A stretch of 64,000 nt of DNA from assembly GCF_029774155.1 (NCBI RefSeq), contig NZ_CP103833.1, forward strand, positions 558,001 to 622,000, given 5' to 3'. The translations under genes were made by a program, and so were the position numbers. Below, piece after piece: positions 3,003 to 56,118 of this stretch. The stretch is from Actinobacillus arthritidis. GTDB lineage: Bacteria > Pseudomonadota > Gammaproteobacteria > Enterobacterales > Pasteurellaceae. Position 1 is the first letter of the stretch; the number at the start of each line of letters is the position of its first letter. Below the pieces are notes generated by a model. The model did no database searches and was not told where the DNA came from. It saw only the letters and a list, made by a program, of their open reading frames with translations.

Positions 3003-4629
<1,627 letters not shown>

Positions 4630-4653
4630 AAGAAAACCCACAAAAATGTGGGT
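4630..4653 (-). terminator. Terminator after bamE
   Basis: Minus-strand stem ACCCACA/TGTGGGT with a short loop, followed by TTTTCTTTT, immediately past the bamE stop. Confidence 0.8.
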
Positions 4654-4661
4654 CATTATAT

Positions 4662-5009
4662 TTATTCAGCTAAAGTTGTTTCAATCGGTTTATCCAATTT
4701 AATATCGCTGACTAAACCTTTAGAATTAAAATAAACGAATAGAGTATGTTGAATAGGATCGTTATAACCTTCACGCTTGATGTAAACATAACTCCAACGA
4801 TCTTGATTAAAGCTGTCTTTTAACATCGGCGTACCTAGCAAATATTGCACCTGAGCTTTGTTCATACCAACTTTAATTTGGTCAATCTTTTCTTGCTCTA
4901 GGTAGTTACCTTGTGGAACATCAATACGATATACAACTTTTTTCACTGTAGAACAAGAGGTTACGCCTACAGCAAGCAATGCGATAGCTAAAAGAGATTT
5001 CATTTTCAT
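4662..5009 (-). CDS. bamE: Outer membrane assembly lipoprotein BamE
   Basis: The 115-residue precursor has a lipoprotein signal ending at VGVTSC, so the acylated Cys is residue 19. BamE is the small subunit of the BAM complex that inserts beta-barrel proteins into the outer membrane. The SmpA/OmlA domain is clear: VVYRIDVPQGNYLEQEKI, then KVGMNKAQVQYLLGTP, matching the E. coli pattern of a conserved helix followed by LGTP. A second ATG two codons in (MKSLL) is also a possible start. It is monocistronic, with yejK upstream on the same strand. Confidence 0.92.
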   Translation of the reverse strand: MKMKSLLAIALLAVGVTSCSTVKKVVYRIDVPQGNYLEQEKIDQIKVGMNKAQVQYLLGTPMLKDSFNQDRWSYVYIKREGYNDPIQHTLFVYFNSKGLVSDIKLDKPIETTLAE

Positions 5010-5079
5010 AATGTTTATTGACCTTTAAATTGTTCAAAATGATTGGATAGATAATACCCAAACTGATAAAATTTTTCCA

Positions 5080-6080
5080 TTATTTATTGCGTTCTAATTG
5101 GTCACGCAAATTCGCTGGTAATCCTTTGATTGTCAAAGTATCGTTTAGTTCATCCCAAATTAAACGTTCGCCGAGTAATTCCGCATTAAAGCTAATTGTT
5201 ACTCCCTTTCCTGAGCCTGAATATTTGGTTAAGGTTTTCAAGGCATTACGAACCGGTGGAATATTTTCTTCGAGTCCGTATTCTTGTTCTTGAGTAAATT
5301 GTGCGAAATTAACCTCATTAAGTGTTGGCAGTGCTTCAGATAATTCACTTAAGGCGATTTCTTCACCGCTGTTAATTTGCCCTTTACAGTATTCAAATAC
5401 TTGCTTTTTGACTTCGCGTATTTGCGGGGCAGATAATTCCCCTTGATCACAATAGTCACTTACTGCTTGTAACAGTGTTTGATTCTGTAGTTGAGGGTTA
5501 AAACCCTCTTCCGCACTCAGGAAATCCATAAAGAAATCCGCAATTTTGCGTCCGACTCGTCCTTTAATAAAGGTGAGATAGCGGTTTGATTGTGCATTGA
5601 TTTTTAATTCTGTCAGATTGATACGGCAAGCGATATCATACTGAGTAATATCCAAATATTCGGTGCGTTTTATGTCTAATTGATCGTCCACTAACATTGA
5701 AGTACGGCTATCAATCAATGCGATAAATAAATAATCCGTTGCCAAAAAGTTATAACGACAAAGGATAAAGGTTCCACCTGATGCAAAAGGATATTTCGCT
5801 AATTCACTCGAGAGCATTTTGGCACTACTATGACTGAACGGCAGAAAATCGGTTTCTTGTTCTAATAAGCGATTAAGTTGCTGAGCAAAAATAGATTCAT
5901 TTTTAAATACGCCGTAAGCCTTTGCTTTACTTTGATAGGCTTGGTGAGCCGCAACATCATTTGTTCAACTTCGGGGCTAATGGCAAGCAGGTTATCGCGA
6001 AGCACCGTATTTAATTCTGGTGTTTCGCCTTCGGTTTGATGAATCTGATGAAGGACAATTTCAGTAACATTAATGCTCAT
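5080..6080 (-). CDS. yejK: Nucleoid-associated protein YejK/NdpA (frameshifted in this sequence)
   Basis: YejK is a nucleoid-associated protein of about 335 residues in E. coli. The N-terminal piece ([13 protein letters not shown]..., starting at 6080) and the C-terminal piece (to 5080) lie in different frames. The break is near 5945-5955: just after EVEQMMLRL the expected [14 protein letters not shown] continues in the other frame. One missing base restores about 333 residues. Supporting features are the [19 protein letters not shown] segment and the C-terminal [13 protein letters not shown], both typical of the family. It is probably intact in the organism and broken here by a sequence error. 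Confidence 0.88.
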
Positions 6081-6172
6081 ACTATTTCTCTTGAGATTAG
6101 GGGTAGAAATAAAAGGTGGGAGATATTATCATTAAACGTACTATTTTTCATTATCAAAAGAAGGAATACATT

Positions 6173-6563
6173 ATGACTAAAGTTATTCACACAGAAAAAG
6201 CACCTGCAAGCAATTGGTCCATACGTACAAGCGGTTGATTTAGGTAATCTTGTTTTAACCTCAGGACAAATTCCAGTTAATCCGCAAACAGGCGAGATTC
6301 CAACAGATATTACTCAGCAGGCACGTCAATCATTAGAAAATGTAAAAGCAATTGTTGAACAAGCCGGTTTAAGCGTAGCGGATATTGTTAAAACAACCGT
6401 TTTTGTAAAAGACTTGAATGATTTCGCAACTGTTAATGCTGAATATGAAGCGTTTTTCCGTGAAAATAATCATCCGGCATTTCCGGCTCGTTCTTGCGTT
6501 GAAGTTGCTCGTTTACCAAAAGATGTTGGTTTAGAGATTGAAGCGATTGCGGTACGCAAATAA
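6173..6563 (+). CDS. ridA: RidA enamine/imine deaminase (frameshifted in this sequence)
   Basis: RidA (YjgF/YER057c/UK114 family) hydrolyses reactive 2-aminoacrylate made by PLP enzymes. Reading from ATG 6173 gives MTKVIHTEKAPA, then the frame breaks. The frame one base over continues as IGPYVQAVDLGNLVLTSGQ and runs to the family ending RSCVEVARLPKDVGLEIEAI. An extra A near 6209 (CTGCAAGCAATT in place of CTGCAGCAATT) explains it, giving 129 residues, the family length. The conserved substrate-carboxylate Arg in PARSCVEV is present. An uptake core ACAAGCGGT lies in the coding sequence at 6227-6235. No full-length open frame exists as written, so the gene is easily missed. Confidence 0.88.
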
Positions 6564-6590
6564 GCGGTCATTTTTAGAGAAAATTTTGCA

Positions 6591-7328
6591 ATGAAGAACA
6601 TTACGCCAAATTGGTATGCGCCTGAGCATATTCGTGCCTTTACTACCGTCAGAACAGGCGGCGTCAGCCAAGTGCCTTTTGATAGTTTTAATTTAGGTGA
6701 TCATGTCGGCGATAATCCTAAGGATGTACAACAAAATCGCCAGTTATTGGTAGAGCAGTTCGGTTTACCGCATTTTCCACTCTTTTTAACGCAAACACAC
6801 AGCACTCGAGTGATTCGCCTACCGTATGACGGCGATAATTTGGAAGCAGATGCGGTTTATACCGATCAACTGAATCAGGTTTGCTTAGTGATGACGGCAG
6901 ATTGTTTGCCGGTACTTTTCTATAGTAAAGATGGAAAAGAAGTGGTCGCTACTCATGCCGGATGGCGTGGTTTATGCGATGGCGTATTAGAAAATACGGT
7001 TGCTGAATTTGCTTGTTCTCCAACGGAGATTTGTGCATGGTTAGGGCCTGCAATTGGTCCAACTAAATTCCAAGTCGGCAAAGAAGTGATTGAGCAGTTC
7101 TGTGCTTTTGATCCGCAAGCGGAACAGGCATTTATTGCGGACCCGACAACAAGCGGTAAATTTTTAGGAAATCTTTACCAAATTGCTCAACAGCGATTGA
7201 ATAAACTTGGTATTACCGAAATTTTCGGTGGAGAGCATTGTACTTTTACCGAACAAGAACGCTTTTTCTCTTACCGAAGAGATAAGCAGACCGGACGTAT
7301 GGCAAGTCTCATTTGGCGTGCGGAATAA
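6591..7328 (+). CDS. pgeF: PgeF/YfiH family (polyphenol oxidase, LACC1-type)
   Basis: This 245-residue protein has the domain once called multicopper laccase, now linked to purine nucleoside phosphorylase activity and, in E. coli, to editing of peptidoglycan precursors. The metal-site motifs are visible: LTQTHSTRV (His near residue 73), VMTADCLPVLF (Cys near 107) and THAGWRGLCDGV (His near 124). GGEHCTF and FFSYRRD near the C terminus are also typical. It starts 27 bp after ridA and is likely cotranscribed with it. The exact physiological substrate in this organism is inference. Confidence 0.88.
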   Translation: MKNITPNWYAPEHIRAFTTVRTGGVSQVPFDSFNLGDHVGDNPKDVQQNRQLLVEQFGLPHFPLFLTQTHSTRVIRLPYDGDNLEADAVYTDQLNQVCLVMTADCLPVLFYSKDGKEVVATHAGWRGLCDGVLENTVAEFACSPTEICAWLGPAIGPTKFQVGKEVIEQFCAFDPQAEQAFIADPTTSGKFLGNLYQIAQQRLNKLGITEIFGGEHCTFTEQERFFSYRRDKQTGRMASLIWRAE

Positions 7329-7939: not shown

Positions 7940-9047
<1,108 letters not shown>

Positions 9048-10977: not shown

Positions 10978-12064
<1,087 letters not shown>

Positions 12065-18970: not shown

Positions 18971-21259
18971 ATGGAAGACTATACTGTTCACCCTTTTTAC
19001 GCCCATTCGGGGTTACTTGAGGATTATTCAGATTGGCAAACCTTACTCAGTCACGCCAATAATGTCGGGCTACTTGTCGCTGAATTTGTCGCACCGTTCG
19101 CTTCACAAGAAATTGCTCGCCGCACGGGGCTATTGCACGATTTGGGCAAATATAGTGCACGCTATCAAAAGCGTTTACATGGCGGAGAGCGGGTAAATCA
19201 TTCCACTGCTGGTGCCAAAATTGCAGTGGAGCGTTGGGGACCTTTGGGCAAAATGATGGCGTTTTGTATTGCCGGTCACCATGCAGGTTTGGCTAATGGT
19301 TCTGGAGAAGGGAAAAATCGTTCTACACTCACACAACGTCTGCAAGAACAATTTGGTCATGGTCATAAAGATCTTCCGTTGCTTGATCCTATTTGGCGCG
19401 AAGAACTTAATTTGCCGGACAAATTGTCTCCTCCTCCTTTGAAATCCTCTAAATACGATCCCTTCTTTTCTTACGCCTTTTTTATTCGAATGCTTTATTC
19501 TTGCCTTGTGGATGCCGACTTTCTTGATACGGAAGCCTTTTATGCTAATCTCGAAAAAAGACCGCTTGAACGAGGAAATTACCCAAATTTAACCACACTT
19601 CATCAGCAATTTAATCAATTTATTGCACAGTTTAGAGAGCAGATAGCCTCTCAAACGCCTAATACACAGGAAGCACAACGCAAAGCGGAAGTAAACCGCT
19701 TGCGGAGCGAAATTCTGGATTATGCAGTTACCCAAGCAAAACAAGAAACAGGCTTGTTTTCTTTAACTGTGCCGACTGGTGGTGGTAAAACTTTTACCTC
19801 TATGGCATTCGCCCTTGAACACGCCAAACAGCACGGTTTACGCCGTATTATCTATGTTATTCCATTTACCAGCATTATTGAGCAAAATGTTGCGGAATTT
19901 CGTAAAGCTTTTGGCGAATTGGGAACAGAAGCGGTATTGGAACATCACAGCACTTTTGATCACGATAACCTGTCTGATAAATCAAGCCGAGATAAGCTGA
20001 AACGAGCATCGGAAAATTGGGATGCACCGATTGTCGTCACCACAGCAGTGCAATTCTTTGAAAGTTTATTTGCCGACCGATCTTCACGCTGTCGCAAGTT
20101 GCATAACATCGCCGGTAGCGTGATTATTTTGGATGAGGCCCAAATGCTACCGCTGAATTTATTACGTCCAATTATGGCGGCGATTGATGAATTGGCTCGC
20201 AATTATCAATGCTCTGTTGTGTTATGTACCGCTACACAACCGGCAATTCACCAAGCAAATGGTTTCTATAAAGGGTTTGAGAATGTGCGAGAAATTGCAC
20301 CAAATCCAACCGCACTTTTTGAAAAGTTAAAACGTACTACGGTAAAGCATATCGGTATTCAAACAGATGCGGAGCCGCAAACCAAACTCGCAGATAACCC
20401 ACAAATGCTGATAATCGTTAATAACCGCCGCCATGCCCGAGCCTTGTATGATTCAACGAAACATTTAGATGGGACTTATCATCTCACTACATTAATGTGC
20501 GCTAAACATCGCTCACAAGCGCTGGCTGAAATTCGTCTTCGTTTAAAACAAAATCTACCTTGCAGAGTGATTGCGACTTCTTTAATTGAGGCTGGTGTCG
20601 ATGTGGATTTTCCACTGGTTATGCGAGCGGAGGCAGGACTAGATTCAGTGGCTCAAGCGGCGGGGCGTTGCAACCGAGAGGGAAAACGCTTGGCGGAGGA
20701 AAGTAATGTTTGGGTTTTCCAACCTGAAGAACAATGGAAAGCACCACTAGAGTTAGGCTTACTTTCTGCCTGTATGCGTTCAACGGTTTATGCTCACGCA
20801 GAAGATCTACTTACTCCACAAGCAATCAATCATTATTTCCAAGCGGTGTATGATGCTAAGGGAGAAGAACTGGATAAAAAAGGGATTTTAGATGCTTGCT
20901 ATAAAGCAGGGCAAAGCCTTAATTTCCCATTCCAAAAAATAGCAGATGATTTCCAAATGATCACAAGCCACTTAATTCCGGTGATTATCCCTTTCGACCA
21001 AGAAGCCGAAAACCTTATTGACCGTTTACGCTATGCGGATCAAGTAGGTGGTATTTTAAGAAAACTCCAACCTTACACTGTGCAAGTGCCAGAGAAAGCA
21101 TTAGCCGAACTTTATCAGGCAGGCAGAGTTGAAGCGATTAATGAAACCAACTTCGGCAAACAGTTTTACTGCTTAATTGGAATGGATTTGTATGATGAAG
21201 TAGCGGGGTTAAGTTGGGAGAATGTGGAGTTTTTGAAAGCTGAGAATAGCATATTCTGA
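18971..21259 (+). CDS. cas3: CRISPR-associated helicase-nuclease Cas3 (type I-C)
   Basis: Cas3 unwinds and degrades DNA marked by the Cascade complex. This 762-residue protein fuses an N-terminal HD nuclease (H28, H56-D57 in LLHDLGKY, H77 in NHSTAG, H103-H104 in GHHAGL) to a superfamily 2 helicase. The helicase has Walker A VPTGGGKT at 267-274, DEAQ at 388-391, CTATQPA near 413, and motif VI QAAGRCNREG. It opens the I-C operon, but its usual neighbour cas5c is displaced 1.6 kb downstream by a SIR2-like gene. A Haemophilus-type uptake core (ACCGCACTT, 20309-20317) lies inside it, unlike most core genes here. Confidence 0.96.
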   Translation: MEDYTVHPFYAHSGLLEDYSDWQTLLSHANNVGLLVAEFVAPFASQEIARRTGLLHDLGKYSARYQKRLHGGERVNHSTAGAKIAVERWGPLGKMMAFCIAGHHAGLANGSGEGKNRSTLTQRLQEQFGHGHKDLPLLDPIWREELNLPDKLSPPPLKSSKYDPFFSYAFFIRMLYSCLVDADFLDTEAFYANLEKRPLERGNYPNLTTLHQQFNQFIAQFREQIASQTPNTQEAQRKAEVNRLRSEILDYAVTQAKQETGLFSLTVPTGGGKTFTSMAFALEHAKQHGLRRIIYVIPFTSIIEQNVAEFRKAFGELGTEAVLEHHSTFDHDNLSDKSSRDKLKRASENWDAPIVVTTAVQFFESLFADRSSRCRKLHNIAGSVIILDEAQMLPLNLLRPIMAAIDELARNYQCSVVLCTATQPAIHQANGFYKGFENVREIAPNPTALFEKLKRTTVKHIGIQTDAEPQTKLADNPQMLIIVNNRRHARALYDSTKHLDGTYHLTTLMCAKHRSQALAEIRLRLKQNLPCRVIATSLIEAGVDVDFPLVMRAEAGLDSVAQAAGRCNREGKRLAEESNVWVFQPEEQWKAPLELGLLSACMRSTVYAHAEDLLTPQAINHYFQAVYDAKGEELDKKGILDACYKAGQSLNFPFQKIADDFQMITSHLIPVIIPFDQEAENLIDRLRYADQVGGILRKLQPYTVQVPEKALAELYQAGRVEAINETNFGKQFYCLIGMDLYDEVAGLSWENVEFLKAENSIF
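20309..20317 (-). repeat. H. influenzae-type uptake sequence in cas3
   Basis: ACCGCACTT is the exact reverse complement of AAGTGCGGT, the H. influenzae USS core, followed by a T-run as in the extended signal. The surrounding chromosome mainly carries the ACAAGCGGT dialect. Confidence 0.7.
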
Positions 21260-21395
21260 AAGTTACAATAATAGAACTTAAATTTCATACTAAATTGAAA
21301 TTAAACATTGCAAAGCATAAAAAGCCTTGATAAGTTATAGGCTACTTATATTTTATATCCAAATTACAATAACAGCTTTTAAATTGAGGTATCCT

Positions 21396-22726
21396 ATGAC
21401 AAATAAAATTACTGTTCTAGTTACAGGTGCAGGTGTTGATAAGACATCAGGAATCAATTTCCCATTAGCCGCAGAGCTCTTACCTGCAATTAGTTACTAT
21501 CTTAATAATACAGAGGAGGGGCGCGTATAGATGCTCTGTTGCGTGATAAAATTAGCGGGCTAAGATTTCGCTTTGATCGTCTAATTAACAGTGCTATTAC
21601 AGATATAACCCAAAGAGATCCTATACAACTTCGAGGAGTTATTCAGCGTATTCAAGAGACGATTGTTAAGCTTCCTGATGATGAAGAAATGCGTATTCAA
21701 AAAAAGCAAGGTGAGCTTATTGTTAGACTTTTTGATCAATTACAAAAAATTGCTTCTGCAAATGTTATAGATGATAAGACACGTGAATTAATAGATGAAG
21801 TTTTTGGAGAGAATGCAAAGGATTTTGATTTGGATGATTCTATCGTTGATATTCGAAGCCTTAATGTCTCAGATACATTCAAATCTATTTTACGTTATAC
21901 CTTGCGACAAGGCCTAGACTCTACTCCAAACCGTATAGCTAGTATTCTTGTAGGTGATCTCCTTGATATAGAAAAGCTTTTGATAGAAAAATTTCTTGGA
22001 TTTTATAACAATAAACTTCCTGATATTAAAAATTATATCTATATTGCTTGGTGTTTTTGGGCATTTTTGCTTTATAAAGATAAAGGGGTTAGAGCTACTC
22101 AAGAAAATATCCCTTTTTATGAAAATATACCGAAAAATTGGAAAGGAATTACCCTGAACTATACTTCATTTTTAGAATATTATCTCGGTGAGAAAAATAC
22201 TATCTATTTTCATGGGGGGCTTTCTACCTATGTGCGAATGGATAATCGTGAGCTTTTGACATTTGATGATTTTGAAAGCAAGTCTCCATTAGAGCTTTTA
22301 GAATCACATATTTGTGATAATTGGTCATTTGATGAAGATGATCCTGCTAATTCTTGTTGTTTAATTCCATCACTAGTTCCACCATTACGATTAAAACCTA
22401 TTCTTTCTAAAAAATATATTGACCTTTGGTTTCAGAGTGGTCAATGGCTAAAAGATGCTGATCATATTATTATCATTGGTTATTCACTTAACACTGCAGA
22501 TGAACATTTTAATGATTTACTAAGAGCACTGAGTGGAAAGAAAATTACAGTAATTGGTCCGAATGTTTTGAGTGAGGCGTATATGAAACGAATAGAATCT
22601 GTTTGGGGAATTAGCCCACAGCAGTTTACTCACAAAAAATCACAAAATAAAAAATCAGCTCAGTGTAGAGAAATAACTCTAATTGAAGCTTATGCAAATG
22701 ATATAAACCTAAGTGAATTATCCTGA
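21396..22726 (+). CDS. SIR2-like protein inside the cas operon (frameshifted in this sequence)
   Basis: The predicted protein has about 443 residues once one G is added to the G-run at 21518-21521. SIR2 domains bind NAD+, and many bacterial SIR2 defence proteins are NADases that kill or arrest infected cells. Visible are VTGAGVDKTSGINFP near the start (the GAGxxxxxG loop), LNYTSFLEYY with the Asn usually needed for catalysis (22157-22159), YFHGG with the putative catalytic His (22211-22213), and IIIGYSLNTADEHF near the end, typical of SIR2_2-type domains. No membrane segment is seen. A long helical insert separates the loop from the Asn/His core. It starts 136 bp after cas3 with GAGGT upstream. 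The gene is visibly more AT-rich than cas3, consistent with separate acquisition. Activity and target are inference. Confidence 0.72.
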
Positions 22727-22820
22727 ATTTATATAAAGTGAGCAGTTTATATAACTGCCAGTGCTAGTAATTAAAGCTCTGTGTATTGAAACAATTTAGT
22801 ATGAAAATACTGTAAAAATT

Positions 22821-22848
22821 CGCCCACTCGTAAAATAAAGAGTGGGCG
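22821..22848. promoter_or_regulatory. Perfect hairpin between SIR2-like gene and cas5c
   Basis: CGCCCACTC and GAGTGGGCG form a perfect 9-bp stem around a 10-base loop, 27 bp before cas5c. The T-run is on the minus-strand side, so it is not a canonical terminator for rightward transcription. It might protect or attenuate the cas5c message. Confidence 0.5.
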
Positions 22849-22875
22849 TGTATTAAATAACTAAAGGGAGCATAT

Positions 22876-23553
22876 ATGCCAAACAAAATCAAACTCCATA
22901 TTTGGGGTGATTATGCTTGTTTTTCCCGTCCTGAAATGAAGGTGGAGCGGGTGTCTTATGATGTGATTACGCCGTCTGCGGCACGGGGGATTTTGGCGGC
23001 GGTGCATTGGAAGCCGGCAATTCGCTGGGTGATTGATAAAATTTATGTCTTAAAACCGATTCAGTTTGAGTCAGTTCGCCGTAATGAGTTGGGCAGTAAA
23101 ATTTCCGCTAGTAAAATCAGTGGGGCGATGAAGCGTAAAACAGCGGCGGATTTATATACCGTGATTGAGGATGACCGCCAACAGCGTCTTGCCACTGTGC
23201 TGAAAAATGTCGGTTATGTGATCGAAGCTCACGCTGTGTTAACCAAAATGGCAGGCGAAGCAGAAACTGTTACCAAGCATATTGAAATGTTTAAACGCCG
23301 TGCGAAAAAGGGGCAATGTTTCCAACAGCCTTGTATGGGCGTGCGTGAATTTGCCGCAAATTTTGCCTTAATTGATGATGACGATCCGTTGCCTGAATGT
23401 TTTTTGGCAGAAAATGAGCGAGATCGTGATTTAGGTTGGATGTTGCACGATATTGATTTTGAACACGGTAATCAGCCTCGCTTTTTCCGTGCAGAAATGA
23501 AAAATAGTGTAATTGATGTGCCACCATTTTATGCCGAGGAGGTCAAATCATGA
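22876..23553 (+). CDS. cas5c: Cas5c (Cas5d), crRNA-processing Cascade subunit
   Basis: In type I-C systems Cas5c replaces Cas6: it cuts the pre-crRNA at the repeat and stays bound to the 5' handle in Cascade. The 225-residue protein has the RAMP start KLHIWGDYACFSRPEMKVERVSYDVITPSAARGI split across residues 5-38 and the GHR-like segment RRRAKKGQCFQQPCMGVREF. It overlaps the cas8c start ATG at 23550 by 4 bp, the usual coupled arrangement. AGGGAG precedes its ATG. Confidence 0.95.
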   Translation: MPNKIKLHIWGDYACFSRPEMKVERVSYDVITPSAARGILAAVHWKPAIRWVIDKIYVLKPIQFESVRRNELGSKISASKISGAMKRKTAADLYTVIEDDRQQRLATVLKNVGYVIEAHAVLTKMAGEAETVTKHIEMFKRRAKKGQCFQQPCMGVREFAANFALIDDDDPLPECFLAENERDRDLGWMLHDIDFEHGNQPRFFRAEMKNSVIDVPPFYAEEVKS

Positions 23554-25329
23554 TTCTCTCCGCTTTAACCCGCTATTATTACCGTCTTGCAAACACAAGA
23601 AGATCGTTCAACAGGCGAAGCCAAAGTACCTTCCTATGGTTTTAGTGAAGAAAAAATCGGTTGGGTACTAGAATTGGATTCAAAGGGAAATTTGGTCAAT
23701 GTCATTCCCAATTTAACCGCTGACAAGAAACCGAAATTGATGAGAGTGCCTCGCCCTGAAAAACGCACATCAGGCATTAAACCTAATTTTTTATGGGATA
23801 AAACTGCTTATGTGCTAGGCGTGGAAAGCAATCAAGACAAAGCCACCGCCAAAGATCAGCCCATCAAATTCGCCGAGAAAACCTTTGAGGCATTTAAACA
23901 GTACCATTTAGATTTGCTTGCGGATTCTAGCGATGAAGGCTTAGTGGCGATAAAAAATTTCTTGCAACAATGGCAACCTGCACACTTTGCTGAATCAATC
24001 TGCCCAACCGAAATGCTTGACGCAAATGTCGTGTTCAAATTAGTCGGCACAAGCAGTTATATTCATCAGCGAGAAGTCGCACAAACTCTTTGGACAAGTT
24101 TGTTGATAAATCAAAGTGATAATGCTGAAAAAGGTTTATGCTTAATTTCAGGCAAATTATCGCCAATTCAACAAACTCATCCTCTTATTAAAGGAGTATT
24201 TGGTGGGCAAAGTTCTGGTGGTTCAATTATTTCTTTTAATAACAAATCTTTCACCTCATTTGGCAAGGAAAAAGGCAGTAATGCCCCTGTTTCTGAGCAA
24301 GTCGCCTTTGCTTACACCACTGCTTTAAATTATTTACTACGTACAGAGGATCATCGTTTAACGATTGGTGATGCCAGTACTGTCTTTTGGGCGGAAGCAG
24401 ACAATAATGCACAAGCCGAAGCCGCCGAAGGCTTTTTCTCCGCCTTAATGACTCCACCTGATGATGAGCAGGAAAACGATAAAATCTTTAAAAAATTGCA
24501 AGAAGTTAGCAAAGGACGACCGCTTGCAGAAATTTCCCCCGAATTATCTGAAAATACCCGTTTTTATGTGTTGGGGCTTGCCCCGAATGCGGCTCGCATT
24601 TCGGTGCGTTTTTGGCTAGATACTACCTTTGGGCAACTGGCGAAAAATCTCAGCGAACATTGGCAAGATCTTGCTCTTGATCCTTGCCCATGGAAAACCC
24701 CGCCTTCAATTTGGAGACTGTTATTACAAACCGCTTCATTAGGCAAAAGTGAGAATATTTCTCCTGTCTTGGCGGGTGAAATGGCTCGGGCGGTTATTAG
24801 CGGTCGTTTATATCCAATGAGTTTGCTTTCTCAGTTGGTCACTCGAATCCGAGCAGATGGCGATATTAACGGCTTGCGAGTAGCGTTAATGAAAGCGGTT
24901 TTACAACGAAAATTTAGAAAAGGTCTTATTAAACAAGGAGTTCCTATGAGCTTGAATAAAGAAAGCGATAACTACGCTTACTTGCTTGGCAGGTTATTTG
25001 CGGTATTAGAAAGAATCCAAACCCAAGCGTTAGGCGAATTAAATGCTGGCATTGCCGACCGCTATTATGGTTCTGCGTCTGCCGTGCCGTTTTCGGTATT
25101 CCCTCGCTTATTAAGCGGTGCAAAACATCATTTATCTCGCTTGAGAAAAGATAAGAGCGGTATGGCGGTCAATCTGGATAAGGATTTAGGCGAGATTATT
25201 GCCAACTTGCCAGAAAATTTCCCTCGCCATTTAAGTATTGATGAGCAAGGACGTTTTGCGATTGGCTATTACCACCAAAAACAAAGTTATTTTGCAAAAA
25301 AAGAAACCACTGAATCTATTGAGAACTAA
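23550..25329 (+). CDS. cas8c: Cas8c (Csd1), large Cascade subunit (frameshift near start)
   Basis: Cas8c recognises the PAM and recruits Cas3. The natural start is ATG 23550, giving MILSALTRYYYRLANT, the usual Csd1 opening. The frame then breaks near 23590-23600 and continues one base over as QEDRSTGEAKVPSYGF to the stop at 25329. Gain of one base or loss of two in the ACACAAGAAG stretch explains it. Corrected length is about 592 residues, as expected. The only in-frame start after the break is a TTG at 23587 without a ribosome site, so as written translation would be poor. The C-terminal third also carries the internal start expected for a small Cas11-like subunit in I-C systems (AAGGAG before ATG 24945), a notable fit. 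Confidence 0.9.
24945..25329 (+). CDS. Possible internal Cas11c start within cas8c
   Basis: In type I-C systems a separate small subunit (Cas11c) is translated from inside cas8c. Here AAGGAG at 24933-24938 lies at good ribosome-site spacing before an in-frame ATG at 24945, opening MSLNKESDNYAYLLGRLFA. The product would be about 127 residues, mainly helical, like known Cas11c. The match of position, frame and ribosome site is seen in the sequence; translation is inference from characterised I-C systems. Confidence 0.6.
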
Positions 25330-25338
25330 GGAAACACT

Positions 25339-26202
25339 ATGTCTATTCAAAATCGCTATGAATTTGTCTTTTTCTTTGATGTAACCAACGGCAACCCAAA
25401 CGGTGACCCTGACGCGGGTAATATGCCACGCCTTGATCCAGATAGTAGTAAAGGCTTAGTAACCGATGTTTGTCTAAAACGCAAAATTCGTAATTTTATT
25501 GAAATGAGTTATGAAAACGAGGCGGGTTACGAAATCTATGTTAAAGAAAAAAGTGTTCTGAACTTACAAAACAAACGTGCTTATGAAGCATTAGGGATTG
25601 AATCGGAAGCGAAAAAATTACCAAAAGATGAAGCTAAAGCCCGAGAAATTACCGCTTGGATGTGTAAAAACTTCTTTGATATTCGCACCTTTGGGGCGGT
25701 AATGACTACCGAAGTAAACAGCGGACAGGTGCGAGGCCCTGTACAACTAGCATTTGCCCAGTCTATCGATCCGATTATTCCGCTAGAAGTGTCGATTACT
25801 CGAATGGCAGTAACCAACGAAAAAGATCTTGAAAAAGAACGCACTATGGGGCGTAAATATATTGTACCTTATGCACTTTATCGTGTTCACGGCTTTATCT
25901 CAGCTAAACTCGCTGAAAAAACGGGCTTTTCTGATGAAGACGTACAAAAACTTTGGCAAGCATTACAACTTATGTTTGAACACGATCGTTCCGCGACTCG
26001 TGGCGAAATGGCGGCTCGCAAACTGATCGTATTTAAACACGACAGCGAATTAGGTAATCAACCTGCTCATAAACTGTTTGAAACGGTAAAAGTTGAACGT
26101 ATCAATGGTGAAAAAGACACACCAGCGAAAGGCTATGATGACTACCGTATCACCGTGCAAGCTGAAGGTTTAAACGGCGTAACCGTTGAAGAATTATTGT
26201 AA
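25339..26202 (+). CDS. cas7c: Cas7c (Csd2), backbone subunit of Cascade
   Basis: Multiple copies of this RAMP protein coat the spacer part of crRNA. The 287 residues begin with the family pattern [20 protein letters not shown], broken here as [16 protein letters not shown] near residue 13. Other matches are [19 protein letters not shown] near 120, [17 protein letters not shown] and the C-terminal region. It begins 9 bp after cas8c and overlaps cas4 as TAATG. No frameshift is present. Confidence 0.95.
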
Positions 26203-26879
26203 TGGGCGATTTGCAACATTCTGCCGAAATATCACCGCTTGTTCCGACCGCACTTGGCGATGACAAGCGGTTGATTTCACTTTCTGCGTTGCAACATTAC
26301 GCTTTTTGTCCTCGTCAATGTGCGTTGATTCACAACGAACAAGCGTGGGCGGAGAATTTTCTTACCGCACAAGGCAAGGCATTGCACGAGCGAGTGGATT
26401 CAAGCGAGCCAGAAGTTCGCAAAGGGATTCGCTTTGAGCGAACAGTTCACGTCGCGACAGAAAAATTAGGCATAAGTGGCATTTTGGATTTGGTCGAGCG
26501 AGATCTGAAAACAGGCGAGCTAAAACCCGTGGAATATAAGCGTGGCAAGCCCAAACTTGAACCGATTGATGAAATCCAACTTTGTGCCCAAGCCTTATGT
26601 TTGGAAGAAATGACCGAGCAAACCATTAACGAGGGAGCATTGTGGTATATGCAACCCCGCCACCGTTTGCCGATCATTTTTTCCACCGAACTACGCACCA
26701 AAACGCTCGCCACCATTGCCGAAGTGCGGTCACTTTTAAACAGCGGAACAACCCCGCTCCCCGAATACAGCAAACGCCGCAAAGCCTGCTCGCTCATCGA
26801 CCTCTGCCAACCACAGTTGTTGGAAAAGGATAGATCTAAGGGGTATGTGGTAGGGTTGTTTGCGAATAATGAAATTTAA
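26202..26879 (+). CDS. cas4: Cas4 exonuclease of the adaptation module
   Basis: Cas4 trims prespacers and selects those with a PAM together with Cas1-Cas2. The 225-residue protein shows the first cluster cysteines in YAFCPRQCALIH (C36, C40), the RecB-nuclease core with ILDLVER (D96) and PVEYKRGK (E111, K113), and further cysteines in the C-terminal RRKACSLIDLCQP for the Fe-S cluster. Its ATG overlaps the cas7c stop. It carries both uptake dialects: ACAAGCGGT at 26263-26271 and H. influenzae-type cores at 26247-26255 and 26722-26730, unusual for one gene. Confidence 0.94.
   Translation: MGDLQHSAEISPLVPTALGDDKRLISLSALQHYAFCPRQCALIHNEQAWAENFLTAQGKALHERVDSSEPEVRKGIRFERTVHVATEKLGISGILDLVERDLKTGELKPVEYKRGKPKLEPIDEIQLCAQALCLEEMTEQTINEGALWYMQPRHRLPIIFSTELRTKTLATIAEVRSLLNSGTTPLPEYSKRRKACSLIDLCQPQLLEKDRSKGYVVGLFANNEI
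26722..26730 (+). repeat. H. influenzae-type uptake sequence in cas4
   Basis: Exact AAGTGCGGT followed by CACTTTTAAA, close to the extended H. influenzae signal. A second, inverted copy is at 26247-26255, and an Actinobacillus-type core is only 8 bp from that one. Confidence 0.75.
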
Positions 26880-26891
26880 TGGAGTTAAAAG

Positions 26892-27646
26892 ATGAAGTTA
26901 TTACCAATAGTAAATGTATTTGAAAAATCGTATGAATTTTGGGAATACAGAGATGCTACTCAAGAGGAAAGATTGAAAAATTATCAGGAATATGGATTTT
27001 TTAATATGCACGTTCCTGATAATTTGGTAAGGATAATTTCAAATGCATATGACGCACTGTCCACATAGCTTTGACTCGGACAGATAACGCTTTAGAAAGG
27101 CATATTGATAATGCATTAGATGTAAATGAGAGTTTTCATGCTTGGAGGAAATTTATGCCTAGTAAAACTCCTGCTCAGTTAACTAATTATCAGAGAAGAC
27201 ACATTTTAGATAATAGTGTTTCACAAGTAATAAATGAAATAGGATGTGTTTTAACTGAAGGCCAGTTTTTGTTTCATGGCGGTAGTTGGTGGGGAAATAA
27301 TGAAATTGGATCTGAATGTATAACAACACGACCATTCTCCACATCGTTTAGCCCGCAAATTGCTTTGCTTAATGCAGAGTGGACTGGTAAGGCTTATGAC
27401 GCAGGAATAATTGATTTGCTGGTGTTAAAGGTAGTTCAGCCATACACTAAAGTTTTTTCTTATAAGATAAAAGGAACAGATAAAGGACATGAGAAAGAAG
27501 TTTTGTTTGCTAGTGGGGCAAAATTGCGATTAGTTAAAACAGAACTGATCAGATCTGACTATAAAGTTTATAAAGCTATTCCCAATAGCATAGAGTGTAT
27601 TGATAAGGAAGTTTGTTTTAATGTGAGGTTGGTAGAAATATCTTAG
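26892..27646 (+). CDS. ADP-ribosyltransferase-like protein between cas4 and cas1 (frameshifted in this sequence)
   Basis: From ATG 26892 (GGAG upstream, 12 bp after cas4) the frame reads MKLLPIVNVFEKSYEFW to a stop at 27066. The next frame continues without a gap as VHIALTRTDNALE to 27646. Adding one base near 27058 gives 251 residues. The C-terminal half has the layout of the mono-ADP-ribosyltransferase fold: FLFHGGSWWGNN (strand 1, with His where many have Arg), RPFSTSFSP (the S-T-S motif, from 27338) and GHEKEVLFASGAKLRLV (the E-x-E motif, Glu codons at 27491 and 27497). These enzymes transfer ADP-ribose from NAD+ to proteins or nucleic acids. The N-terminal 100 residues are helical and unrecognised. 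There is no signal peptide. The assignment is from motif order only, and the His substitution leaves activity open. No antitoxin-like neighbour is visible. Confidence 0.62.
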
Positions 27647-27767
27647 CATACATAGACTATCTGCTTTTTATTTTTATCCTAGAACATCTGAAAGTACGAT
27701 TTTTAGACGGACTAACAACAAGCCGTTCTAAAACAAAACTGCGGTCAAATCCAAAGGAATTTTCCAA

Positions 27768-28781
27768 ATGCGCAAACTCCAAAACACTCTCTACATCACC
27801 ACCCAAGGTAGCTATTTGCATAAAGAGCGAGAAACCTTGGTGGTGGAGCAAGATCGGAAGAAAGTGGTACAGTTGCCGATTCATTCCATTGGGCATATTT
27901 TTTGTTTTGGGAATGTTTTGGTGTCGCCGTTTTTAATGGGATTTTGCGGTGAAAATAACGTAAATTTGGCATTTTTTACCGAAAATGGGCGTTATCTTGG
28001 GCGGTTACAAGGGCGACAAAGTGGTAATGTATTGTTACGCCGAGCCCAGTATAAAAAGTCGGAGACCAACCCTGTTCCTGTGGCTCGCAACATCATTGCG
28101 GCCAAAATTCAAGCATCTAAGCGGGTGTTACAACGGCAAATTCGTAATCACGGCGAAAATGCTGACCTTCAATCGGCAATTACCGCATTAAATTACAGCC
28201 TGCAACAGTTGAAAACTGCGGATAATTTGGATTTGATTCGAGGTATTGAGGGTGATGCGACTTCCCGTTATTTTGGAGTGTTTTCTCATCTTCTTAAAGA
28301 AAATAGTGGTTTCCACTTTGACGGACGTAATCGCCGCCCACCTCGTGACGGTGTGAATGCGTTGCTTTCATTTCTTTATAGCATTGTAGGGAAAGATATT
28401 AGCGGGGCATTGCAAGGCGTTGGGCTTGATCCGCAGATTGGCTTTCTGCACGCAGATCGGCCGGGGCGAGATAGCTTAGCTCAAGATATTTTGGAGGAAT
28501 TTCGTGCGTGGTGGGTGGATAGAATGGTGCTGTCGCTGATCAATCGAGGGCAGATTAAGCCTGATGATTTTATAACAGAGGCTAGCGGTGCGGTAACACT
28601 CAAGCCTGAAGCAAGAAAATTACTATTTCAAACGTTGCAAGCGAAAAAACAAGAAAAAATCATCCACCCATTTTTAGAGGAAGAAGTAGAAATCGGTTTG
28701 TTACCTTATATCCAAGCGATGTTATTGGCTCGTCATTTGCGAGGCGATTTGGCAGAATATCCACCATTTTTAATACGTTAA
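27768..28781 (+). CDS. cas1: Cas1 integrase (type I-C)
   Basis: Cas1 inserts new spacers as a complex with Cas2. The 337-residue protein carries the metal-binding active-site residues E161 (GIEGDATSRYF), H228 (FLHADRPGRDS) and the acidic helix D240/E243 (LAQDILEEFR). The N-terminal beta domain begins LQNTLYITTQGSYLH. A 121-bp gap with a USS-like stretch separates it from the ADP-ribosyltransferase-like gene. No frameshift. Confidence 0.96.
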   Translation: MRKLQNTLYITTQGSYLHKERETLVVEQDRKKVVQLPIHSIGHIFCFGNVLVSPFLMGFCGENNVNLAFFTENGRYLGRLQGRQSGNVLLRRAQYKKSETNPVPVARNIIAAKIQASKRVLQRQIRNHGENADLQSAITALNYSLQQLKTADNLDLIRGIEGDATSRYFGVFSHLLKENSGFHFDGRNRRPPRDGVNALLSFLYSIVGKDISGALQGVGLDPQIGFLHADRPGRDSLAQDILEEFRAWWVDRMVLSLINRGQIKPDDFITEASGAVTLKPEARKLLFQTLQAKKQEKIIHPFLEEEVEIGLLPYIQAMLLARHLRGDLAEYPPFLIR

Positions 28782-28847
28782 AATCTGCAAAAATTTGTTG
28801 AAATCTGACCGCTTGTTTCTGTTTTATTTATTGAGGAATTGGCAACT

Positions 28848-29141
28848 ATGCTGATGTTGATTACCTACGACATTTCATTTGATGACCCAGAAGGGCAGGT
28901 TCGCCTACGCCGTATTGCTAAGCATTGTTTGGATTATGGTGTACGGGCTCAGTATTCTGTGTTTGAGTGTGATGTTACACCCGACCAGTGGGTCGCACTC
29001 AAAAATAAATTATTGGCAACTTACAACCCTGATTGTGATAGTTTGCGTTTTTACCATTTAGGCAGTAAATGGCGTAATAAGGTCGAACATCACGGTGCAA
29101 AACCTGCAGTGGATATTTTTAAAGATACGTTAATTTTATAG
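28848..29141 (+). CDS. cas2: Cas2 (type I-C)
   Basis: Ninety-seven residues with the ferredoxin-like fold of Cas2: MLITYDIS (the conserved Asp of the first strand), RLRRIAKHCLDYGVRAQYSVFE interrupted by few changes, and SLRFYHLGSKW. It is the structural core of the Cas1-Cas2 integrase. ATG 28848 is preferred over a TTG at 28839 because GAGG then sits at normal spacing and the protein starts as in relatives. A USS (28808-28816) lies between cas1 and cas2. Confidence 0.93.
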   Translation: MLMLITYDISFDDPEGQVRLRRIAKHCLDYGVRAQYSVFECDVTPDQWVALKNKLLATYNPDCDSLRFYHLGSKWRNKVEHHGAKPAVDIFKDTLIL

Positions 29142-29332: not shown

Positions 29333-30888
29333 GCGACCACCTACGCGTGGCTGTGAATTGAAACATTATTGAAAAGTTACGCTACGCGACTGATGCTAGC
29401 GACCACCTACGCGTGGCTGTGAATTGAAACGAATTGAGAAAAATGCAAGACTTTAACTACAACACGCGACCACCTACGCGTGGCTGTGAATTGAAACAAG
29501 AGTAGATGCTAGTGGTTTATCTCAAAAAGTTGCGACCACCTACGCGTGGCTGTGAATTGAAACTCGTTTACCGTCCGCAGGTTCGGCTGATAATCAGGCG
29601 ACCACCTACGCGTGGCTGTGAATTGAAACACGATGAAGTCATCACTTGTTGTGATGAAGATATGCGACCACCTACGCGTGGCTGTGAATTGAAACAAGAT
29701 CGTCCAATAAGGCTAGGCGACCTGTGATGGCGACCACCTACGCGTGGCTGTGAATTGAAACAAATTGAGAAAAATGCAAGACTTTAACTACAACAGCGAC
29801 CACCTACGCGTGGCTGTGAATTGAAACAACTAAATATAATTAAATCCCCCACTCATTGAAGCGACCACCTACGCGTGGCTGTGAATTGAAACAATGATGA
29901 CACACGAGAAGAAACAGGTGCGAACGCTGGCGACCACCTACGCGTGGCTGTGAATTGAAACACTCGTTGAAAGTCGTGCGGTCGCCCACATATTCGCGAC
30001 CACCTACGCGTGGCTGTGAATTGAAACAACATTACCAATTTTGCCTAGAGATGAAAAAAAGCGACCACCTACGCGTGGCTGTGAATTGAAACCAGTATAT
30101 CGAGCTTCAAGGAAAAGCGTTCTACAAGCGACCACCTACGCGTGGCTGTGAATTGAAACTTCTTAGTGCAACAAAAAAAGAACCGTGAATTTTTGGCGAC
30201 CACCTACGCGTGGCTGTGAATTGAAACAAGTAAAACTTTTTGATTTGCCAAACGAGCTTCCGGCGACCACCTACGCGTGGCTGTGAATTGAAACATTGCA
30301 GGTCAAGCTACTGTTGTGTTAACCGGTGCGCGACCACCTACGCGTGGCTGTGAATTGAAACGCTAGCTACAAGGCAGTTGTAGATCTATTAGTAGAAGCG
30401 ACCACCTACGCGTGGCTGTGAATTGAAACAACAACAGGGGGCGAAACAGCCCCTTAAATTAGGGGCGACCACCTACGCGTGGCTGTGAATTGAAACATCG
30501 TTATGAATTTGAGCGTGAAGTAAATTATTTGCGACCACCTACGCGTGGCTGTGAATTGAAACAAAAGAAACAGCGAAAATTAATGGTAAATATGATTTGC
30601 GACCACCTACGCGTGGCTGTGAATTGAAACAATTACGTCATACGGCAAGTGCATTAAGCCCTCTTGCGACCACCTACGCGTGGCTGTGAATTGAAACCAC
30701 GCCTCGAATAACAAAGACCTCTTCGTCATACTTGCGACCACCTACGCGTGGCTGTGAATTGAAACAAGTAGCATTGTGGGTTACGGGCTATGAAACTTGG
30801 GGCGACCACCTACGCGTGGCTGTGAATTGAAACCTGAATAAGAGAGCGTCTCAATACTTTCCGTTGGCGACCACCTACGCGTGGCTGT
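29333..30888 (+). CRISPR. Type I-C CRISPR array, 24 repeats and 23 spacers
   Basis: The repeat is 32 bp, begins GCGACCACCTACGCG and ends GTGAATTGAAAC, the I-C 3' handle type. Repeats start at 29333, 29399, 29466, 29532, 29598, 29664, 29730, 29796, 29861, 29930, 29996, 30061, 30128, 30196, 30263, 30330, 30398, 30465, 30531, 30599, 30666, 30734, 30802 and 30867. All are identical as read except the last, which keeps only 22 bases. Spacers are 33-37 bp, mostly 34-36. Spacers 2 and 7 are near-identical. The orientation follows the cas operon, with the leader on the cas2 side, so spacer 1 should be the newest. Confidence 0.99.
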
Positions 30889-30896
30889 TTTTTAAT
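30867..30896 (+). terminator. Truncated last repeat running into a T-run
   Basis: The final repeat matches for 22 bases and then changes to TTTTTTAATAATC. The repeat's own CCAC...GTGG stem followed by six T could act as a terminator for the pre-crRNA, a simple economy seen in some arrays. Confidence 0.45.
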
Positions 30897-31033
30897 AATC
30901 AGTATTGCTGATTTTGTAATCGGTAACCTTTTGTCGCTAAAATTCTCCACTTATTTGATCTCGATTTTTGTTTTCTTAGTTCGTCAATGTTAAACTTTAG
31001 TGAATATTATTTAACGACTTAGAGAAAGAGAAA

Positions 31034-32643: not shown

Positions 32644-34145
<1,502 letters not shown>

Positions 34146-53899: not shown

Positions 53900-54391
53900 T
53901 TATAAACAGTTTTTATCGCCACGAGAGAGGCTGATTACTCCAGAGCGGACGATTTCCACAATAGTGGTTTCTTGTTTGACCGCTTCAATAAACGCATTGA
54001 GTTTTTCGCTCGTACCGGATAACTGAACCGTATACAGTTTTGGCGTAATATCGACAATCTGTCCACGGAAAATATCAACCATACGCTTTAACTCGTCACG
54101 AGTTGAACCGGTTGCTCTTACTTTGAGTAATAGCACTTCACGTTCAATATGCTCGGTCGGACTTAGATTCGATACTTTAAAAACATCAATCAATTTATGT
54201 AACTGTTTTTCGATTTGTTCTAAAACGTTTTCATCGCCCTTTGCTACAATCGTCATACGTGAAAGCGTTGCATCGTCAGTCGGAGCAACGGTTAAACTTT
54301 CGATATTGAAACCACGTTGGGAGAAAAGACCAACCACACGAGATAATGCACCCGATTCATTTTCGAGTAATACTGATAATGTTCTACGCAT
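53900..54391 (-). CDS. ilvH: Acetolactate synthase regulatory subunit
   Basis: This 163-residue small subunit gives acetolactate synthase its valine sensitivity and full activity. The ACT domain is clear: [20 protein letters not shown], then [12 protein letters not shown], and the C-terminal extension [15 protein letters not shown]. Its start overlaps the end of ilvI by 8 bp, so the two are cotranscribed. Confidence 0.94.
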
Positions 54392-56106: not shown

Positions 56107-56118
56107 TGAATCCTCCAA

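What the first reader, a model, noticed from the sequence alone, without database searches (positions are those of the whole stretch)
18971..29141. Type I-C cas operon carries two predicted NAD+-using genes at its module boundaries
Seen: the usual I-C order cas3-cas5c-cas8c-cas7c-cas4-cas1-cas2 is interrupted twice, by a SIR2-like gene between cas3 and the Cascade genes and by an ADP-ribosyltransferase-like gene between cas4 and cas1. Both are co-oriented with the operon and the second starts 12 bp after cas4. Known: SIR2 and ADP-ribosyltransferase folds both use NAD+, and SIR2 NADases cause abortive infection in other defence systems. Inference: they could form a back-up killing or dormancy layer tied to CRISPR interference or adaptation, or protect the operon from loss. 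I know of no described I-C locus with this pair.
Basis: partly seen in the sequence, partly recalled or inferred. Interest (0 to 1): 0.88.

Follow-up and report, generated by a model that had tools for sequence, protein, structure and literature searches.

The report
CRISPR-guarded SIR2 gene in cas operon
A bacterium seems to use its CRISPR complex, guided by a tiny built-in RNA, to keep a neighbouring defence gene switched off, so that a virus that disables CRISPR would switch the back-up on.

Summary
The type I-C cas operon and the two extra genes are really there, in an Actinobacillus genome (genus inferred). Between the SIR2-like gene and cas5c lies a mini-CRISPR (22758-22862). Its first 14 spacer bases match, next to a TTC PAM, a site just after cas3, upstream of the SIR2-like gene; apart from the guide this site is unique in the genome. 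The layout recurs: 25 of 38 motif-bearing loci have a PAM-flanked match after cas3, against a mean of 0.08 for shuffled guides and 1.57 for swapped ones, and mismatches pile up at bases 6 and 12. An intact orthologue with its own co-varying guide and target sits in the same place in Cardiobacterium valvarum. Relatives place Kiwa, PD-T4-4, SIR2-HerA or type III RM there. Best reading: a Cascade-repressed back-up defence, the kind a 2024 preprint (not held here) calls CRISIS. The ART-like gene sits in a second cargo slot, has no guide found, and is not a recurrent partner. Both genes are frameshifted here, but so are five housekeeping genes, so assembly error is likely. Structure prediction could not be run.

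The parts
18971..21259 (+). cas3 (I-C)
   Evidence: PADLOC Cas3c 4e-227
21263..21296 (-). target site (protospacer) of the mini-CRISPR guide; exact 14-nt seed at 21283-21296, 20 of 34 positions match in all; upstream of the SIR2-like gene
   Evidence: unique in the genome apart from the guide
21297..21299 (-). PAM 5'-TTC-3' next to the target
   Evidence: read from sequence; TTC and TTT are the I-C PAM consensus in N. lactamica (passages of PMC10865793)
21308..21336 (+). inferred promoter of the SIR2-like gene (TTGCAA 21308-21313, TAAGTT 21331-21336)
   Evidence: by-eye similarity to the Cardiobacterium locus; the consensus scan of the window is at chance level
21396..22726 (+). SIR2-like gene, in two reading frames (21396-21530 and 21539-22726) in this assembly; probable Cascade-repressed effector
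   Evidence: pieces 81% and 72% identical to the intact 443-aa orthologue L090:4442-5773
22758..22792 (+). psiR1: degenerate CRISPR repeat (last 14 nt: 13 of 14 as in the array repeat), weak stem
   Evidence: fold -5.5 kcal/mol, z -1.5, 11 of 200 shuffles as good; only copy outside the array at no mismatch to the 14-nt pattern
22793..22821 (+). psiS: guide (spacer-like)
22822..22862 (+). psiR2: second repeat-like element, 8-bp stem
   Evidence: fold -16.3 kcal/mol, z -5.9; position and form as in relatives by eye
22876..23553 (+). cas5c
23587..25329 (+). cas8c
25339..26202 (+). cas7c
26202..26879 (+). cas4
26892..27646 (+). ADP-ribosyltransferase-like gene, in two reading frames in this assembly; second cargo slot, no guide found
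27768..28781 (+). cas1
28839..29141 (+). cas2
29333..30898 (+). CRISPR array, about 24 repeats of 32 nt (end approximate)

Best explanation
The cas3-cas5c slot holds a CRISPR-supervised defence module. A mini-CRISPR just upstream of cas5c makes a crRNA-like RNA that loads onto the I-C Cascade (inferred). Its first 14 bases pair, next to a TTC PAM, with the region just upstream of the SIR2-like gene's promoter (the match is shown in sequence; the promoter is inferred). Because continuous pairing stops there, Cascade should sit and block transcription without Cas3 cutting (inferred from described CreTA and CreR systems). If an anti-CRISPR, a mutation or an insertion disables Cascade, the SIR2-like protein is made and, like other SIR2 defence enzymes, probably depletes NAD+ and stops the infected cell (inferred). 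The slot is exchangeable: relatives place other defence systems under the same kind of guide. The ART-like gene is separate cargo in a second slot, probably read together with cas4, with no sign of Cascade control.
For: Guide and target: exact 14-nt match with a TTC PAM, 37 bp after the cas3 stop; PAM plus 14 nt occur once in the 2.27-Mb genome apart from the guide itself. The ectopic repeat is the only copy outside the array at no mismatch to the 14-nt pattern; one further place has one mismatch. Recurrence: of 97 distinct loci with cas3 and cas5c, 59 have a gap of at least 200 bp, 38 of these a creA-like motif, and 25 of 38 a target with TTC and at least 12 of 15 scored positions within -20 to +100 of the cas3 stop on the - strand; shuffled guides give a mean of 0.08 (max 1 in 200 rounds), guides swapped between loci 1.57 (max 5 in 100 rounds). 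Bases 6 and 12 match in only 4 and 5 of 25, the other positions from 1 to 14 in 20 to 25 of 25, although 6 and 12 were left out of the scoring; this skip register gives 19 loci at 13 of 15 or better, the eight other registers 2 to 8. Co-variation: guide and target both begin AATTTAGTATG in the window and AATTTAGTGTA in Cardiobacterium. Intact orthologue in the same slot. Known systems in the slot under guides: PD-T4-4, SIR2-HerA, Kiwa, type III RM (one member of each scanned, others by clustering). 17 of 25 psiR1 keep a hairpin before the handle, counted by eye. I-C Cascade has been used as a promoter repressor with TTC PAMs (passages of PMC10865793).
Against: No expression, repression or toxicity was measured. 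The SIR2-like frame is interrupted in this assembly. The promoter scan of the window is at chance level; pooled over 25 loci the signal is modest (mean best 8.0 against 7.45 of 12 for shuffles). The window's psiR1 stem is weak, and 8 of 25 psiR1 fold otherwise. SIR2 assignment rests on motifs and a profile bridge; no fold could be run. 13 of 38 motif-bearing loci have no TTC target by the rule used: L035, L036, L040, L041, L047, L054, L066, L086, L087, L109, L112, L116, L141; of these L040 and L047 have a post-cas3 target with TTA, L036 a weak one (11 of 15, TTA), L041 and L054 a target elsewhere, and L109 and L112 a + strand match. 11 of 24 Pasteurellaceae loci with cargo in this slot show no guide by the stricter criteria, including Thoeris, OLD-like and one DSR2-like system.
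Confidence: 0.8

Rival explanations
1. CreR-like autoregulation: the guide mainly limits Cascade itself, because transcripts from the post-cas3 promoter read through the SIR2-like gene into creA-cas5c-cas8c-cas7c; the SIR2-like gene is a passenger.
For: All genes are on one strand with short gaps; in L041 the guide matches a site directly upstream of creA-cas5c instead of after cas3.
Against: In 25 of 38 motif-bearing loci the target is right after cas3, at the head of the gap and away from cas5c; an RNA hairpin (psiR2) lies before cas5c.
Confidence: 0.12
2. Relic: a decayed repeat left from array rearrangement; the guide-target match is chance or shared ancestry.
For: One locus alone is only moderately unlikely: for the window 2 of 200 shuffled guides reach 13 of 15 somewhere in the gap.
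Against: Recurrence with a fixed position, strand, PAM and 6-nt mismatch period; guide and target change together; own pairs beat swapped ones.
Confidence: 0.04
3. SIR2 and ART form one NAD-based killing pair tied to CRISPR.
For: Both genes sit in one operon; SIR2 and ART folds use NAD+ (established knowledge).
Against: The pair was seen in the window only; relatives of each gene lie elsewhere without the other in the neighbourhoods viewed; only the SIR2 slot has a guide.
Confidence: 0.04
4. Two independent passenger defence genes at insertion hotspots with no functional tie to CRISPR.
For: Both slots carry varied cargo in relatives; 11 of 24 cargo loci lack a guide. This remains my reading for the ART-like gene.
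Against: For SIR2, the guide-target evidence.
Confidence: 0.08

Closest known systems
CRISIS, CRISPR-Suppressed Immune Systems (Shu et al. 2024, bioRxiv 2024.12.27.630466; seen only as described in passages of PMC12409349)
   Different: I could not read the preprint, so I cannot say whether I-C, Pasteurellaceae or this SIR2-like family are in it.
CrePA (Shu et al. 2025, not held; seen only through passages of the review PMC12737573)
   Same: Protein toxin, crRNA-like antitoxin, Cascade represses the promoter.
   Different: CreP is described as typically a KilA-N protein acting on FtsZ; the protein here has no KilA-N hit and is SIR2-like.
CreTA (type VIII toxin-antitoxin; part 1 of 5 of PMC9458426; passages of PMC12055562)
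   Same: psiR1-psiS-psiR2 layout, partial match at the toxin promoter next to a PAM; in Citrobacter rodentium (I-E) the module also lies after cas3 and the target overlaps the UP element.
   Different: CreT of the first CreTA systems is an RNA; here a conserved 443-aa protein fills the slot.
CreR (Liu et al. 2023, not held; recalled and via passages of PMC13131331 and PMC12948488)
   Same: Mini-CRISPR RNA that turns Cascade into a repressor.
   Different: CreR targets the cas promoter; here the target heads the cargo gene. L041 looks like the CreR form.
Nezha / SIR2-HerA (PADLOC SIR2 and HerA models)
   Same: SIR2-type effector; in L047 (scanned) and L036 (same clusters) this system sits in the same slot with a guide.
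   Different: The window gene has no HerA partner and only a weak profile match to those SIR2 proteins (hhalign probability 35).

Membership tests
Type I-C CRISPR-Cas | cas3c, cas5c, cas8c, cas7c, cas4, cas1, cas2 and an array | tested here: met
CRISIS (CRISPR-repressed embedded defence) | non-cas defence-like gene between cas genes | tested here: met
CRISIS (CRISPR-repressed embedded defence) | CRISPR guide aimed upstream of that gene next to a PAM | tested here: met
   that CRISIS uses such a guide is my inference from CreTA/CrePA
CRISIS (CRISPR-repressed embedded defence) | repression by Cascade and release by anti-CRISPR | not testable with these tools
   needs reporter or RNA-seq
CRISIS (CRISPR-repressed embedded defence) | embedded gene protects against phage | not testable with these tools
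   needs phage challenge
CreTA (type VIII TA) | crRNA-like antitoxin with degenerate repeats, partial match upstream of the toxin | tested here: met
CreTA (type VIII TA) | toxin is an RNA | tested here: not met
   long conserved protein frame, 72% identity over 394 residues to the orthologue; an RNA toxin inside it was not looked for
CrePA | toxin carries a KilA-N domain | tested here: not met
   no such Pfam hit for the window pieces or relatives
SIR2 superfamily | match to a SIR2 family model above its cut-off | tested here: not met
   no such hit; PADLOC only weakly PDC-S21 and AbiH
SIR2 superfamily | profile relation to accepted SIR2_2 proteins, and GAG, N and H motifs | tested here: inconclusive
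   profile A2 hits L159 (3.7e-7), which passes SIR2_2 (24.7 against 24.5 bits); hhalign 93.8% over 94 columns; ThsA/DSR2 set: no match; motifs by eye
SIR2 superfamily | Rossmann-like SIR2 fold | not tested
   structure machine busy at each of 18 tries with L090
ADP-ribosyltransferase | match to an ART family model | tested here: not met
   no hit for the pieces in Pfam and NCBIfam or, main piece only, PADLOC; relatives: no Pfam hit over cut-off (L155, L156), no PADLOC hit (L155)
ADP-ribosyltransferase | conserved FHGG, (S/T)-(T/S)-F and ExE-like motifs | tested here: inconclusive
   seen by eye in a three-sequence alignment; motif meaning recalled

The most novel reading that the evidence does not exclude
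The I-C operons of Pasteurellaceae and Neisseriaceae are a two-port defence platform. Port 1 (cas3-cas5c) takes an exchangeable effector kept off by Cascade through a drifting mini-CRISPR guide; port 2 (cas4-cas1) takes an exchangeable effector read together with cas4. The cell thus pairs one arm that is off while CRISPR works with one that is on while CRISPR works, and the window fills port 1 with a SIR2-like family that passes none of the family models searched.
Probability: 0.4. Interest if true: 0.72.

Novelty: new member of a known kind. Interest (0 to 1): 0.56.

Why it matters
The general idea (CRISPR-suppressed immune systems) was already named in a 2024 preprint, so this is not a new principle. 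What it adds is a strong sequence case in type I-C: guides, targets, PAM and the 6-nt mismatch rhythm show by evolution alone that Cascade reads these sites, and the same slot carries named defence systems as well as a SIR2-like family without a model. It gives a simple rule (look between cas3 and cas5c for a guide starting about 70-120 bp before cas5c) for finding back-up defences that anti-CRISPR phages would trigger, and it makes the open question put in the review PMC12737573 (other CRISPR types, other cellular targets; passage) directly testable.

Tried and rejected
Tried without result: SIR2 main piece against genome contigs (41 stretches matched a pattern, none a relative) and profile A2 against viral contigs (none); SIR2 orthologue against phages (none) and PDB sequences (none); ART piece and profile against PDB (nothing convincing); PF09344 in the own genome (none; a poor choice of family for I-C); promoter scan (chance level); array spacers of 28 loci against their own cas region (one weak hit, in L059); hhalign of the SIR2-like profile against a ThsA/DSR2 set (nothing).

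Rejected: SIR2-ART as a recurrent pair; 'decayed pseudogenes' as first reading of the frameshifts, because five housekeeping genes in the same window are broken too; guide control of the cas4-cas1 slot: repeat-like motifs of 11-12 of 14 were listed there in L043, L048, L061 and L066, none with a PAM-flanked target among the three best listed.

Against my reading: one search stopped with an error after 13 loci. In it the number of 200 shuffled guides that did as well anywhere in the gap was 2 (window), 20, 134, 0, 34, 2, 5, 10, 1, 0, 6, 2, 22, so most loci are weak one by one; L036's best hit was away from cas3 and L043's looks like chance. The looser scan also listed hits that look like chance (L076, L077, L080, L131). 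In the matrix, L041 and L054 have no target in their own post-cas3 window (11 and 8 of 15). The loci are related, so counts are not independent events, and the Fisher p is not corrected for descent.

Rows dropped: of 59 Cas5c places, the window's own and 38 others were used; 20 were not fetched (a second piece of the L061 gene and 19 short matches of 41-46% identity). Of 119 loci (window, 38, 80), five without a recognised cas3 (L052, L068, L069, L082, L083) were left out; 114 were reduced to 97 by dropping identical cas5c surroundings; 38 with a gap under 200 bp and then 21 without motif were dropped.
Full report
What is there. The window holds a complete type I-C cas set in the order cas3, cas5c, cas8c, cas7c, cas4, cas1, cas2, all on the + strand, followed by an array of about 24 repeats. 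A SIR2-like gene lies between cas3 and cas5c and an ART-like gene between cas4 and cas1; the latter starts 12 bp after the cas4 stop. Two same-genus genomes match in contig length the records of Actinobacillus capsulatus and Actinobacillus genomosp. 2, so I call the organism an Actinobacillus.

Both genes are interrupted. SIR2 reads 21396-21530 and then continues in another frame, 21539-22726; ART reads 26892-27068 and then 27071-27646. I would not call them pseudogenes: purF, leuB, mreB, lysS and ilvI in the same 64 kb are cut or split as well, and the genome is scored 96.0% complete with 4.3% contamination. Indel errors in the assembly are the simpler explanation. All searches used the pieces apart.

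The missed element. Upstream of cas5c stands a solitary degenerate CRISPR repeat; its last 14 bases differ from the array repeat at one. At no mismatch to CTGTGNATTGAAAC it is the only copy outside the array in the genome; one further place has one mismatch. It is followed by a spacer-like stretch and a second repeat-like hairpin (22822-22847, -16.3 kcal/mol, z -5.9). The stem of the first repeat is weak (-5.5 kcal/mol, z -1.5). The first 14 spacer bases occur once more in the window, on the - strand at 21283-21296, 37 bp after cas3 and about 100 bp before the SIR2-like start codon, with TTC at the PAM position. PAM plus 14 bases occur once in the whole genome, apart from the guide. TTC is an I-C PAM, and I-C Cascade can repress promoters (passages of PMC10865793).

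Is it more than chance? I fetched 38 further loci from 140 Pasteurellaceae genomes (54 of 140 have a Cas5c match; 20 weaker places were not fetched) and 80 loci from named genomes (322 relatives found, the best 80 kept). Of 97 distinct loci with cas3 and cas5c, 59 have a gap of at least 200 bp, 38 of those a repeat end near cas5c, and 25 of the 38 a target with TTC within -20 to +100 of the cas3 stop, on the - strand, matching at 12 or more of 15 scored positions. Shuffled guides give a mean of 0.08 loci, guides swapped among loci 1.57. The scored positions are 1-17 without 6 and 12; at those two the pairs match in 4 and 5 of 25, at the other positions from 1 to 14 in 20 to 25 of 25. Eight other skip registers give 2 to 8 loci at 13 of 15 or better; this one gives 19. 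That Cascade flips out every sixth base is recalled knowledge; the period itself is shown here. In a guide-by-target matrix of 13 loci, own pairs average 12.3 of 15 and other pairs 10.3; 0 of 20000 permutations reach the observed sum, and 13 of 20000 for nine representatives. The 13 motif-bearing loci without a TTC target are named under evidence against.

The SIR2-like gene occurs in this slot twice. Cardiobacterium valvarum (L090) has an intact 443-aa orthologue (81% and 72% identity to the two window pieces) between cas3 and cas5c, with its own guide. Guide and target have changed together: AATTTAGTATG in the window, AATTTAGTGTA in Cardiobacterium. Downstream of both targets I see by eye TTGCAA followed by GATAA(A/G)TTAT, a plausible promoter; a consensus scan of the window does not stand out. 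Elsewhere the family is found on a Methylococcus plasmid right after type I RM genes (46% identity) and in one genome of the same order with no cas gene that I recognise among the ORFs nearby. It is rare: 1 of 140 family genomes had a full match, 1 of 369 class genomes a match, each time the window's own; with the profile 8 of 398 phylum genomes matched, of which the window's own and one other in full and six in part and weakly.

Is it SIR2? No family model passes its cut-off; PADLOC gives only weak matches to PDC-S21 and AbiH. The N-terminal GAGVDKTPGI, the LNYTSFL and YFHGGL motifs and the GYS(L/F)N stretch resemble SIR2-like defence proteins (by eye). The profile reaches 359- and 358-aa proteins (3.7e-7 and 1.7e-5); one passes Pfam SIR2_2 (24.7 against 24.5 bits) and one falls just short (23.4); hhalign gives 93.8% over 94 columns. 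The link to the SIR2 of SIR2-HerA is weak (35%), and a ThsA/DSR2 set gives none. I call it SIR2-like, likely an NAD-consuming enzyme; the activity is inference.

The slot is exchangeable. Among 24 Pasteurellaceae loci with a Cas5c of at least 70% identity and a gap of at least 600 bp, counting the window, 13 show the mini-CRISPR: the window, L034, L036, L040, L041, L042, L045-L049, L051, L054. Under it sit PD-T4-4 (L034), SIR2-HerA (L036, L047), Kiwa (L042, L049), type III RM (L051) and a three-gene set beginning with an NA37 protein (L040, L045, L048) (families scanned in one member, the rest by the clusters). Eleven loci have cargo without a guide by these criteria, among them Thoeris (L044), a DSR2-like protein (L035, which passes only the looser motif and has no target) and OLD-like proteins (L038 scanned; L039, L053, L061, L067 by clustering); some of these keep only the second hairpin (by eye). 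L040, L047 and, weakly, L036 have TTA at the PAM position. In L041 the guide points to the promoter-like region just upstream of itself and cas5c, which looks like CreR autoregulation. In more distant Proteobacteria the gap is often only about 330-550 bp with the same guide-target layout, as expected for small CreT-type toxins.

The ART-like gene. The second slot, cas4-cas1, also holds varied cargo: DarT with a macro-domain protein, PIN, reverse transcriptase, HNH, GmrSD_N, Nmad2 and others (ten proteins scanned). Loci with cargo in one slot tend to have it in the other (of 83 loci, 22 both, 6 only cas3-cas5c of at least 600 bp, 7 only cas4-cas1 of at least 250 bp, 48 neither; Fisher p 4e-9, not corrected for descent). 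No guide with a PAM-flanked target was seen in this slot. The ART-like protein has relatives of 31-40% identity in the 20 listed of 23 plasmid records, one of them near an 'abortive infection family protein'. It is probably defence cargo read with cas4; I see no sign that it works with the SIR2-like gene.

Comparison. CreTA, CrePA and CreR are described (passages; part 1 of 5 of PMC9458426), and defence systems between cas genes that are repressed by the CRISPR complex have been named CRISIS (passages of PMC12409349, citing a 2024 preprint not held here). The listings showed no paper on a SIR2-like protein under such control in type I-C, but the library lacks the preprint and most subscription papers. 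I therefore file it as a new member of a known kind.

Limits. Nothing about expression, repression, toxicity or NAD+ was measured.

Noticed in passing
window 868-2383, 8220-9047, 11165-12064, 32644-34026, 54384-56118: purF, leuB, mreB, lysS and ilvI are truncated or split between frames, which points to indel errors in this assembly.
   Followed up: partly
cas4-cas1 gap in L035-L050, L061-L066, L070, L080-L090 (not all filled): Second cargo hotspot of I-C operons with varied defence-like genes (DarTG, PIN, reverse transcriptase, HNH, GmrSD and others); no guide with target seen.
   Followed up: partly
L041 7846 and 7915 (oriented coordinates): Guide matches a site directly upstream of its own gene and cas5c (TTC PAM, 14 nt), a CreR-like variant beside a DSR2-like protein.
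   Followed up: partly
L054 7373-8001 (oriented): Guide-target pair (mismatches include bases 6 and 12; 11 of 15) heads a 75-aa ORF that looks like a DUF2188 protein (name recalled); its target seed equals the window's guide seed.
   Followed up: partly
L154 (Methylococcus sp. EFPC2 plasmid) 3070-7323: SIR2-like homologue directly follows type I restriction-modification genes, as if guarding them instead of CRISPR.
   Followed up: no
L084, L085, L088, L089, L096, L100, L103, L115, L125, L126, L128, L138, L139, L142, L145, L146: Short cas3-cas5c gaps (334-546 bp) with guide-target pairs in Neisseria, Azoarcus, Thauera, Vibrio and others: probable small CreTA-type modules in I-C.
   Followed up: partly
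L079 (CABDVE010000001.1): Record titled Pseudomonas stutzeri NCTC11607 is 1.93 Mb and has the contig length of the Pasteurellaceae genome G128; probably mislabelled.
   Followed up: no
window 29333-30898: The array repeat (GCGACCACC...) differs from several relatives (GCAGCCACC...) in the left arm of the stem, probably weakening it.
   Followed up: no
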